DNA from: Filimonas lacunae
GTDB taxonomy: Bacteria > Bacteroidota > Bacteroidia > Chitinophagales > Chitinophagaceae
NCBI RefSeq assembly: GCF_002355595.1
Contig: NZ_AP017422.1
Location: 5,584,823 to 5,648,822, forward strand
Reading direction: 5' to 3'
Length of the DNA stretch: 64,000 bases
Part shown: positions 23,774 to 25,843 of the stretch, piece by piece
How positions within the stretch are numbered: position 1 is the stretch's first letter
Layout: each line of letters begins with the position of its first letter
Notes under the pieces: model-generated
Told to the model about the DNA's origin: nothing
Seen by the model: only the letters and a program-made list of their open reading frames with translations
The model's database searches: none
Translations under genes and position numbers: made by a program

Positions 23774-24886
23774 TTATTCTGGCCTGGGGGTATCTTCTTC
23801 TATTTCCGTTGCGGGTGTTTTTAACGGACTTTTCTCAGGTTGTTCTTCTCCAAACAACACGCCCCACTGGCGGAACATTTCAGTTCGGTCGAAAATAATT
23901 TTCAGGATGGCGATAATAGGGAGCGACAAAAACATGCCTGAAATACCCGCCAGCTTACCTCCTAAAAACACAGCGATAATACTAACCAGTGCATTTATCT
24001 TCACTTTGGAGCCTACAATCCTGGGCATCAGGATATTATTATCTAAAAATTGTACTACTGCAATTATTATCAACACAGTGAGCACAGGCCCCATTTCCTG
24101 TGAGGAGGATATGGTAAGCAGAATCCCTATTACATTTCCTATTAATGCTCCGATATAAGGTATCAGATTTAGAAAAGCGAAAATGATAGCAATAAGCAAG
24201 GCATGCTTAATACCAAAAATGGTGAGCGCTATTCCCAGCAAAAAGCTCATGTAGGTTATTTGTATCAGCAACCCTCCTATGTAACTTTTGATAATAGCTT
24301 CTGTTTCGTGTACCACTTCCTGCACTTTAGCATGATGATCGCGTTTAAACCAGAGAAACACAAAGTTCAGCAGGAGGTTTTTATAATATAACAGGAAGAA
24401 TATATAAATAGGTATTAAACCAAAAAACAATAGAACAGAGGTGGCAGAAGTAGCTACCCCGCCCAATACTCCGCCGGCATAATTAAGGAGTTTATTGCTT
24501 TGCTCATTGATCATTTTTGTTTGCTGTTGGGTAGAGAAATGACCTTTTTTGTCTACCCACTCACTCAAATGATTCACATGTTGCGTCATATTGGCCTTGA
24601 TGGTGGGGAAATCAATAATCAACTTATTGATCTGCATAAAGAATAGCCAGCCAAAGAAACCTACCACAATCACCAATAAAATAATGGCCAGTACAATGCT
24701 GATGGCCCGGGGAACTTTCAAGCGATCTAAAAAACGGCAAACCGGTAGCAGCACCAGCGCCAGGAAAAACGAAAGAATAATAGGCATGATCACATCACTG
24801 GCTAACATTACCAGGGCGCCTACCAGAAAAAGTCCTAACATTTCAATAGACCGCCTAACAGTAAGAGGGAGGGTAGAATTATTCAT
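23774..24886 (-). CDS. AI-2E family transporter (permease)
   Basis: A 370-residue membrane protein with the AI-2E (UPF0118/PerM) layout: an N-terminal helix pair (SIEMLGLFLVGALVMLASDV), a long soluble helix region around residues 85-150 (KGHFSTQQQTKMINEQSNK), then several C-terminal membrane helices including FLNLIPYIGALIGNVIGIL, the conserved PYxG motif. Some relatives export small molecules or exchange ions. The name does not prove autoinducer transport. It starts the apparent operon, with PIG-L only 32 bp downstream. The charged C-terminal tail (EEDTPRPE) is cytoplasmic. Confidence 0.9.
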   Translation of the reverse strand: MNNSTLPLTVRRSIEMLGLFLVGALVMLASDVIMPIILSFFLALVLLPVCRFLDRLKVPRAISIVLAIILLVIVVGFFGWLFFMQINKLIIDFPTIKANMTQHVNHLSEWVDKKGHFSTQQQTKMINEQSNKLLNYAGGVLGGVATSATSVLLFFGLIPIYIFFLLYYKNLLLNFVFLWFKRDHHAKVQEVVHETEAIIKSYIGGLLIQITYMSFLLGIALTIFGIKHALLIAIIFAFLNLIPYIGALIGNVIGILLTISSSQEMGPVLTVLIIIAVVQFLDNNILMPRIVGSKVKINALVSIIAVFLGGKLAGISGMFLSLPIIAILKIIFDRTEMFRQWGVLFGEEQPEKSPLKTPATEIEEDTPRPE

Positions 24887-24972: not shown

Positions 24973-25004
24973 GAAATATACTCTTATCACTAAAGAGATT
25001 TAAA
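24973..25004 (-). promoter_or_regulatory. Predicted promoter of the AI-2E/PIG-L/symporter operon
   Basis: On the minus strand there is TTTA (25001-25004), a 20-bp spacer and TATATTTC (24973-24980). This is one mismatch per box from the Bacteroidota TTTG / TAnnTTTG pattern. About 85 bp of leader would follow to the ATG at 24886. The palindrome array begins 21 bp further upstream. Confidence 0.45.
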
Positions 25005-25024
25005 CGGTTTTTCCCAACCTGATG

Positions 25025-25276
25025 GTGAGCAATCCTCAACCAGTTGTGAGCGCTTTTCCGTTATTCGCGAGCGCTCAACATCGTTTTATGAGTACTCCCA
25101 TCCAGTTCGTGAGTGCTCACGGTTGGCATAAAAGCACTCCCCGAGCGACGAGTAGCAGTTACAAAGTCACCGTGAGGGCTCACGGAATGGTTGTGAATAC
25201 TCCTGAAAACGCCGTGAGCCCTCACCTTTTGATGGAGAGGGCTCACAATTATGTAATTAGTCTCCGGGAATTGCTC
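25025..25276. repeat. Array of 12 palindromic GTGAGNNCTCAC units, exact 21-bp period
   Basis: Twelve units start at 25025, 25046, 25067, 25088, 25109, 25130, 25151, 25172, 25193, 25214, 25235 and 25256, with no slip in register. The first 12 bases of each unit follow the palindrome GTGAGNNCTCAC. Position 4 is A in 12 of 12, position 5 is G in 11, position 9 is T in 11 and position 10 is C in 10. Units 5, 8 and 10 are perfect. Positions 13-21 differ in every unit. Because 21 is a multiple of three and stops are few, open frames exist on both strands (about 90 and 75 codons, with VSxH repeats), but I do not consider them genes. Twenty-one bp is two turns of B-DNA, so all palindromes face the same side. 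It lies 31 bp from the stop at 25307 and upstream of the operon starting at 24886. Confidence 0.85.
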
Positions 25277-25306
25277 CACAGACACTTATAAGAAGATAGC
25301 GTACTA

Positions 25307-25843
25307 CTAAACTGCTAACGGCACCAATTTTATATCTCCCAGGTCTTTATCTGTAGAAGGTTTGACTTTAACAGGTGGTTGGTAGGGCTTGGTTGTATCC
25401 TGCTTTTGCTGTTCAAAAGGCACATGCTTCTCGTTTTTCTTGGGGATGAAACGAATATCCTGTTCCCAGCGCTTATATCCTTCTGCCATGATGGTTAATT
25501 TGTATTCATGGTAGAAAGGCAGGGAAGAAAAGGTGAACTTGCCATTCTTCTTGGTAGTCTGCTCTTTAAAATAGGGGTCTTCTGCTTTGTCATCAGGCTG
25601 GGCCATAGGATTAGGCTCATTATCCTGTTGCTGCAGAATAATGCTTACCTCTTTTACAGGTGTACCTGTACTATCCACAATTCTACCTGAAATGCGGCAG
25701 ATGTTAACGTAAGAACGAGAGTCGTTACCGCCAGACGGGCCCATACCACCGCCACCGCCCATGCCACCACCGCCCATACCCATTTGGGCATTGATAGTAA
25801 GCGGAGCTAACAACAAAAGGAAAATCCAGATTTTTACAGACAT
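25307..25843 (-). CDS. Secreted carboxypeptidase-regulatory-like protein, Gly/Met-rich
   Basis: A 178-residue protein. The signal peptide (MSVKIWIFLLLLAPLTINAQ) is followed directly by a low-complexity Gly/Met stretch (residues 21-39), then a single CarboxypepD_reg-like beta domain (about residues 48-125). The domain contains ISGRIVDSTGTPVKEVSIIL and GKFTFSSLPFYHEYKLTIMA, the fold also found at the front of TonB receptors. The C-terminus is Lys/Pro-rich. The function is unknown; an envelope role is likely. It follows an Oar-like receptor gene on the same strand, but a terminator stands between them, so joint expression is uncertain. Confidence 0.75.
   Translation of the reverse strand: MSVKIWIFLLLLAPLTINAQMGMGGGGMGGGGGMGPSGGNDSRSYVNICRISGRIVDSTGTPVKEVSIILQQQDNEPNPMAQPDDKAEDPYFKEQTTKKNGKFTFSSLPFYHEYKLTIMAEGYKRWEQDIRFIPKKNEKHVPFEQQKQDTTKPYQPPVKVKPSTDKDLGDIKLVPLAV

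What the first reader, a model, noticed from the sequence alone, without database searches (positions are those of the whole stretch)
25025..25276. Twelve GTGAGNNCTCAC palindromes in perfect 21-bp register with unique 9-bp spacers
The period never slips over 252 bp. The palindrome is preserved (A4 12/12, T9 11/12) while the spacers are all different. Ordinary tandem duplication would keep spacers alike, so the palindromes seem selected. Twenty-one bp equals two helical turns, which puts every dyad on one face of the DNA. This looks like a cooperative binding platform for a dimeric protein, or a mini-repeat element not in standard lists. I know no named family with this design.
Basis: seen in the sequence. 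Interest (0 to 1): 0.85.

Follow-up and report, generated by a model that had tools for sequence, protein, structure and literature searches.

The report
Orphan palindrome array with matching gene
The window holds a stray copy of a 21-bp palindrome array whose relatives sit just upstream of an unnamed, many-copy gene family in two bacterial phyla, which points to an undescribed pairing of a protein gene with its own DNA address array.

Summary
The array is real: 11 clear units plus one weak, exactly 21 bp apart, in a Filimonas chromosome. Its motif sum is 91 of 120 against at most 54 in 200 resamples. Dyad arms are conserved, spacers are at chance identity. It shows no coding signal.

The larger finding lies outside the window. 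An array of the same motif stands upstream of one gene in this genome and of its orthologue in F. zeae. That gene belongs to an unnamed family (helical N-terminus, FnIII-like C-terminus) with 17 copies plus a fragment here, 18 in F. zeae and none found in a third congener. Lag-21 arrays lie upstream of 50 of 70 such genes and downstream of 3 of 69. In two MAGs, one titled Verrucomicrobia, they lie upstream of 15 of 15. Dyads are significant in 35 of 53 arrays, with differing sequences. The window array is an orphan.

Best reading: a cooperative docking array for a dimeric protein of the cognate module. Linkage is shown; binding is inferred.

The parts
25025..25246 (.). Eleven 12-bp degenerate dyads (GTGAG-NN-CTCAC core) at an exact 21-bp step with non-alike 9-bp spacers
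25256..25276 (.). Weak twelfth unit (ATTAGTCTCCGG + spacer), 4 of 10 motif positions
   Evidence: not in the chain
25307..25843 (-). 178-aa CarboxypepD_reg gene; its stop codon ends 30 bp from the array
   Evidence: F. zeae counterpart (73% identical) beside the AI-2E gene with no array between
23774..24886 (-). AI-2E family transporter gene, on the far side of the array in the same orientation
25022..25291 (+). 89-aa ORF through the array; judged spurious (period is a multiple of 3, no codon-position signal)

Best explanation
The window array is an orphan, gene-free copy of a dyad array. The linked copy of the same motif lies upstream of a 204-aa gene at 5.794 Mb of the same chromosome (L021/L163), about 185 kb away, and upstream of that gene's orthologue in Filimonas zeae (L023/L162). 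More widely, genes of this unnamed family (helical N-terminus plus FnIII-like C-terminus, many paralogues per genome) are often preceded by a 21-bp-period array whose dyad differs between classes. Most likely mechanism: a dimeric DNA-binding protein, either the family protein itself or a product of the same module, binds each 12-bp dyad. The 21-bp step (two B-DNA turns) places neighbouring dimers on one face so that they can touch and load cooperatively. At the gene this would give autoregulation; at orphan arrays the same protein would nucleate a local nucleoprotein patch. Shown: array, register, dyad conservation, lack of coding signal, gene-array linkage, motif shared by orphan and linked arrays. 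Inferred: which protein binds, dimeric and cooperative binding, any effect on expression.
For: Own genome: three arrays of this motif. The window units fit GTGAG..CTCAC best (7.58 of 10) and GTAAG, GTTAG and GTCAG forms less well (6.25, 6.33, 6.00). Among upstream regions of 17 own-genome family genes (1.2 kb each) a matrix made from the window array scores highest at L163 (103.7; next 44.4, median 12.8); among 18 in F. zeae at its orthologue L162 (214.2; next L164 131.9). Same locus and motif in both species although spacers differ. Eight of 15 arrays queried match a gene-linked upstream region by blastn: L020 to L163, L022 and L024 to L162, L072 and L074 to L164, L075 to L175, L076 to L171, L125 to L187. 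Linkage: arrays of period about 21 or a multiple upstream of 41 of 71 genes, downstream of 2 of 71; lag-21 above the null upstream in 50 of 70, downstream in 3 of 69. In the MAGs of L035 and L033, 15 of 15 upstream stretches have lag-21 identity of 0.55-0.82 (one of them is the L035 gene already). L035 was fetched by array pattern alone and a family gene starts 14-76 bp beyond its array, depending on where the array is taken to end. Dyads: 35 of 53 linked arrays at p < 0.05, KS p = 9e-27; window p = 0.003. Genomes: R2 array hits in 7 of 394, of which 6 are among the 26 with the gene; Fisher p = 3e-7, or 5e-5 without this genus.
Against: The window array itself has no blastn match to any linked array, nor do L068-L071, L109 and L135 (7 of 15). 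The window matrix does not separate classes well: it scores GTAAG, GTTAG and GTCAG arrays 94.5-164.9, and the own-genome GTAAG array L070, about 1.7 kb upstream of a family gene with a 395-aa ORF between, lay outside the 1.2 kb scanned. No DNA-binding domain is recognised in the family protein; its C-terminal fold is FnIII-like, and the model is weak (pLDDT 64.9, pTM 0.43, two-row alignment; Foldseek best E 1.9e-3, none below 0.001). 18 of 53 linked arrays lack significant dyads, and a stricter test was positive in 9 of 41. 10 of 35 Filimonas genes show no array by TRF or lag. Motif similarity follows protein similarity only weakly (Mantel p 0.051 and 0.017, 12 arrays). G001 has no family gene found yet has a 22-bp array (L151). 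Outside Filimonas the genome-level association rests on one genus (four genomes of g69). F. zeae lacks the window array. Genes and arrays here are paralogues and relatives, so p-values are indicative.
Confidence: 0.5

Rival explanations
1. REP/RAYT-like selfish system: the gene-array module is a mobile unit and orphan arrays are non-autonomous copies dispersed by it; the array is a recognition platform for mobilisation, not regulation.
For: Many paralogues per genome and orphan arrays matching linked ones. Two own-genome modules 209 kb apart share 2082 bp at 99.5% identity with sharp ends, covering part or all of the kept 3' part of an upstream ORF, the array and the gene; one copy is 5'-truncated in that ORF. 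F. zeae lacks the window array at the same locus.
Against: No transposase or recombinase family reached its cut-off. One family member had a sub-threshold Pfam hit to DDE_2, Mu transposase (E 0.023, 14.9 bits against a cut-off of 23). No His is invariant or nearly invariant in the 30-row alignment, though one Tyr (Y181) is. No gene remnant was noticed beside the window array. One clear module duplication was seen.
Confidence: 0.3
2. Ordinary operators of a host regulator (LacI- or SlmA-like motif) that happen to be amplified in tandem.
For: GTGAGTACTCAC is given as the E. coli SlmA consensus (passages of PMC3116907). GTGAGCGCTCAC occurs in 34 papers, several of the 20 listed being on LacI (listing only); that it is the core of the ideal lac operator is recalled.
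Against: Arrays with other dyads share the architecture beside the same gene family. Neighbours of the GTNAG arrays are of mixed kind and orientation (ORF lists). SlmA sites are described as 50 places along the E. coli genome, mainly in coding regions.
Confidence: 0.1
3. Neutral minisatellite: tandem duplication followed by decay, with palindromes kept by hairpin-templated mutation.
For: Homogeneous arrays in F. zeae and higher-order repeats show growth by duplication.
Against: Register kept although spacers are at chance identity. Linkage to one gene family, upstream and rarely downstream, with lag 21 in all 50 upstream cases above the null. The same motif at one locus in two species.
Confidence: 0.07
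4. Coding heptapeptide repeat.
For: The period is a multiple of 3 and an 89-aa ORF crosses the window array.
Against: No codon-position signal (window p = 0.89; 1 of 53 linked arrays p < 0.05); 11 of 53 arrays have no open frame; some arrays have periods of 22, 43 or 65 bp.
Confidence: 0.02

Closest known systems
REP sequences with TnpA_REP/RAYT (REPtrons)
   Same: Extragenic palindromes near one gene and also dispersed, with a matching palindrome class per gene
   Different: Protein matches no HuH transposase in the searches made; no conserved GTAG beside the dyads; regular 21-bp tandem arrays
SlmA binding sites / ideal lac operator core (the latter recalled)
   Same: Near-identical 12-bp palindrome (GTGAGTACTCAC; GTGAGCGCTCAC)
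   Different: Here tandem arrays at a fixed step, with other dyads in other classes
Iterons and centromere-like arrays (recalled, no call)
   Same: Regularly spaced repeats beside a gene, suited to cooperative protein binding
   Different: On a chromosome, many paralogous copies, no replication or partition gene recognised above cut-off
CRISPR arrays (recalled, no call)
   Same: Regular repeats with unlike spacers
   Different: 12-bp degenerate dyads and 9-bp spacers; cas genes were not searched for

Membership tests
REP/RAYT (REPtron) | Associated HuH tyrosine transposase | tested here: not met
   No such match in Pfam and PHROGs (30 members), NCBIfam (4 members) or PDB sequences; no invariant His. 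A sub-threshold DDE_2 hit in one member is not HuH.
REP/RAYT (REPtron) | Conserved tetranucleotide, most often GTAG, before the palindrome | tested here: not met
   Spacer columns 13-21 carry at most 0.42 bit over 27 units of three arrays; definition from passages of PMC8266576
REP/RAYT (REPtron) | Extragenic palindromes, gene-linked and dispersed, matching the linked gene's class | tested here: met
   7 of 15 arrays queried, the window's among them, had no blastn match to a linked array
REP/RAYT (REPtron) | Great numbers per genome | tested here: inconclusive
   Three arrays of this motif in the own genome; arrays of all classes were not counted genome-wide
SlmA sites | Bound by SlmA (TetR family) | not tested
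   SlmA was not searched for; binding cannot be tested here
LacI-family operators | Bound by a LacI-family protein | not testable with these tools
   Motif resemblance only (listing; rest recalled)
Coding tandem repeat | Codon-position pattern of change | tested here: not met
CRISPR | cas genes and near-identical repeats of usual length | not tested
   cas genes not searched; the repeats are 12 bp and degenerate

The most novel reading that the evidence does not exclude
A previously undescribed, multi-copy class of paired genetic units in Bacteroidota and Verrucomicrobiota: a helical-FnIII protein gene preceded by its own 21-bp dyad array, each class with its own dyad code so that paralogues in one cell address different arrays, and each seeding orphan arrays such as the one in this window.
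Probability: 0.45. Interest if true: 0.92.

Novelty: categorically new. Interest (0 to 1): 0.82.

Why it matters
A gene family without a name in the libraries searched and an array architecture not found in the papers searched are tied together in genomes of two phyla, with up to about 18 copies per genome. If each paralogue recognises its own dyad, this is a natural set of orthogonal protein-DNA address pairs and a new kind of repeat-gene partnership beside REP/RAYT. It also makes a direct test possible: which module protein binds which array.

Tried and rejected
Coding heptad reading: not supported. Rfam: no match at gathering threshold in 9 loci; the window itself was not given to that search. 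Viral origin: no relative of the family in viral contigs from 69 pattern matches; Foldseek against viral models gave FnIII and tail proteins with E of 1.6e-3 or worse, so a phage tie is not excluded. PADLOC: none for 7 proteins. Dyad test on TRF consensus units was weak (9 of 41 at p < 0.05); the profile test on 53 arrays came after it, and both are told. The window matrix proved not class-specific. 'RteC-like' for the upstream ORF1 is my impression only; Pfam and PHROGs give nothing above cut-off. Conserved DNA between array and gene in part of the loci was seen but not resolved. Set aside as two- or three-unit matches: L025/L027 (G120), L032, L083 (G227). L033 has an array but no family gene within its 8 kb; L032's surroundings were not examined for the gene. 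L172 and L174 are near-identical copies and both are in the counts. 'Filimonas lacunae' for the window genome is an inference from size, single contig and genus; no call names it. Gene names such as SecA or PurH in my notes are by eye.

Papers: ten searches; nothing listed by them describes such arrays with this gene family, as far as titles and abstract starts show. Seen more closely: passages of PMC3116907 and PMC8266576.

Full report
What is in the window. Between a CarboxypepD_reg gene and an AI-2E transporter gene, both on the minus strand, lie eleven clear and one weak 12-bp dyads with an exact 21-bp step. Exact GTGAGNNCTCAC occurs in 3 of 12 units; the rest are degenerate. The register makes it significant: 91 of 120 matched positions against at most 54 in 200 resamples; the sum is the same whether the twelfth unit is taken at 25256 or at 25004. 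TRF and a dyad-only scan do not see the array.

Selection on arms. Three arrays of this motif were found in the own genome. Over their 27 units the ten arm columns carry 1.01 bit on average and the nine spacer columns 0.15 bit (p = 2.6e-4); spacer identity within the window array is 0.28, about chance. The two central bases are a pyrimidine-purine step in 20 of 27 units (counted).

Relatives. Among 394 family genomes the two-unit pattern (up to 2 mismatches) matched in 4: own, F. zeae, G120 and G269. The genus comes: G002, same genus, carries the arrays of the record titled Filimonas zeae. F. zeae has three arrays of this motif with alike spacers. One lies at the same locus as an own array, between counterparts of the same 204/205-aa and response-regulator genes with further shared neighbours. 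F. zeae has no array at the window locus. Model R1 found further arrays with GTAAG, GTTAG and GTCAG dyads at 21-22 bp in the two species, and model R2 arrays in four genomes of one other genus plus a weak two-unit hit.

The gene family. The 204/205-aa gene and a 218-aa gene beside another array proved to be related. Searching with them gave 18 matches in the own genome, one of them a weak fragment, 18 in F. zeae and none in G001. None lies in the window; the nearest is about 60 kb from the array. Of 30 members scanned, single members have weak Pfam or PHROG hits (best E 5e-4); NCBIfam (4 members) and PDB sequences (best E 0.026) give nothing convincing. An earlier scan gave a sub-threshold DDE_2 hit in one member (E 0.023). 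The structure model is weak overall (pLDDT 64.9), but ten-residue blocks from residue 121 on score 65-86 and resemble FnIII domains (best Foldseek E 1.9e-3). The family was found in 26 of 394 family genomes, 14 of 101 genera (at most seven candidates were scored per genome, so copy numbers there are lower bounds).

Linkage. I tested 71 genes: 35 Filimonas paralogues, 35 from other genera of the family and one from L035. Five more Filimonas-sized details apply: L172 and L174 are near-identical copies, and a few stretches were cut by contig ends. TRF finds arrays of about 21 bp or a multiple within 1.5 kb upstream in 41 and downstream in 2. The lag test exceeds its null upstream in 50 of 70, each time with best lag 21, and downstream in 6 of 69, 3 of them at lag 21. 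In the MAGs of L035 (titled Verrucomicrobia) and L033 (titled Chitinophagales), 15 of 15 genes with enough upstream DNA have lag-21 identity of 0.55-0.82. No null was run there; with the 0.43 threshold, none of 14 downstream stretches exceeds it, one ties it at lag 15, and three have best lag 21 below it. Upstream was measured from the start of the match, which in a few cases is inside the gene. One of the 15 is the L035 gene itself. MAG binning is a caveat. Among Filimonas genes, 25 of 35 have an array by TRF or lag; 10 do not. Median distance from array end to gene is 128 bp over 53 arrays.

Dyads. A profile test against column permutation gives p < 0.05 in 35 of 53 linked arrays, 12 of 16 in Filimonas and 23 of 37 elsewhere; the window array gives 0.003, the floor of the test. 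The dyad sequences differ between classes. A stricter test on TRF consensus units was positive in only 9 of 41. The 53 are the arrays that passed a length and score filter among 85 genes.

Cognate pairing. By consensus the window units are of GTGAG class (7.58 of 10 against 6.00-6.33 for the other three forms). A matrix made from the window array scores highest at L163 among 17 own-genome genes and at its orthologue L162 among 18 in F. zeae. The matrix is not class-specific: it scores arrays of the other GTNAG forms 94.5-164.9, and one of these, L070, lay beyond the 1.2 kb scanned. Eight of 15 arrays queried match a linked upstream region by blastn; the window array, L068-L071, L109 and L135 do not. 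Motif similarity follows protein similarity weakly.

Mobility. Two own-genome modules share 2082 bp at 99.5% identity, and one is 5'-truncated in the upstream ORF, so duplication of such segments happens.

Mechanism. I commit to a docking array for a dimeric protein encoded by the cognate module, loaded cooperatively because the step is two helical turns. Linkage, register, dyads and lack of coding signal are shown; binder, cooperativity and effect are inferred. A REP/RAYT-like selfish reading is the main rival.

Noticed in passing
L073:3459-3866, L164:2622-2867 and similar loci: Downstream of several family genes lie a DUF5675 gene and a ~82-aa gene (APTPPFFKKLR motif) in the same order; the DUF5675 protein of L073 also matches phrog_1501, unknown function.
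   Followed up: partly
L192:7953-10034 and L193:7930-10011: 2082-bp duplicate module, 99.5% identical, one copy 5'-truncated in the upstream ORF.
   Followed up: partly
L109:16452-16778: Sixteen-unit array of GTTTG-type dyads with unlike spacers in the own genome, after a 112-aa ORF that looks HxlR-like by eye; same style, another sequence.
   Followed up: partly
L103:2101-2206 and 2611-2700: Two short 21-bp arrays of TTGAC-N5-GTCAA with A-tracts near a 107-aa ORF that looks HTH-like by eye.
   Followed up: no
L151:15212-15640: 22-bp array beside a lepA-like ORF (by eye) in G001, a congener in which no family gene was found.
   Followed up: no
L171-L188, between array and gene: Conserved stretches of roughly 80-400 bp upstream of the gene in many of the Filimonas loci; no Rfam match in the 9 loci searched.
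   Followed up: partly
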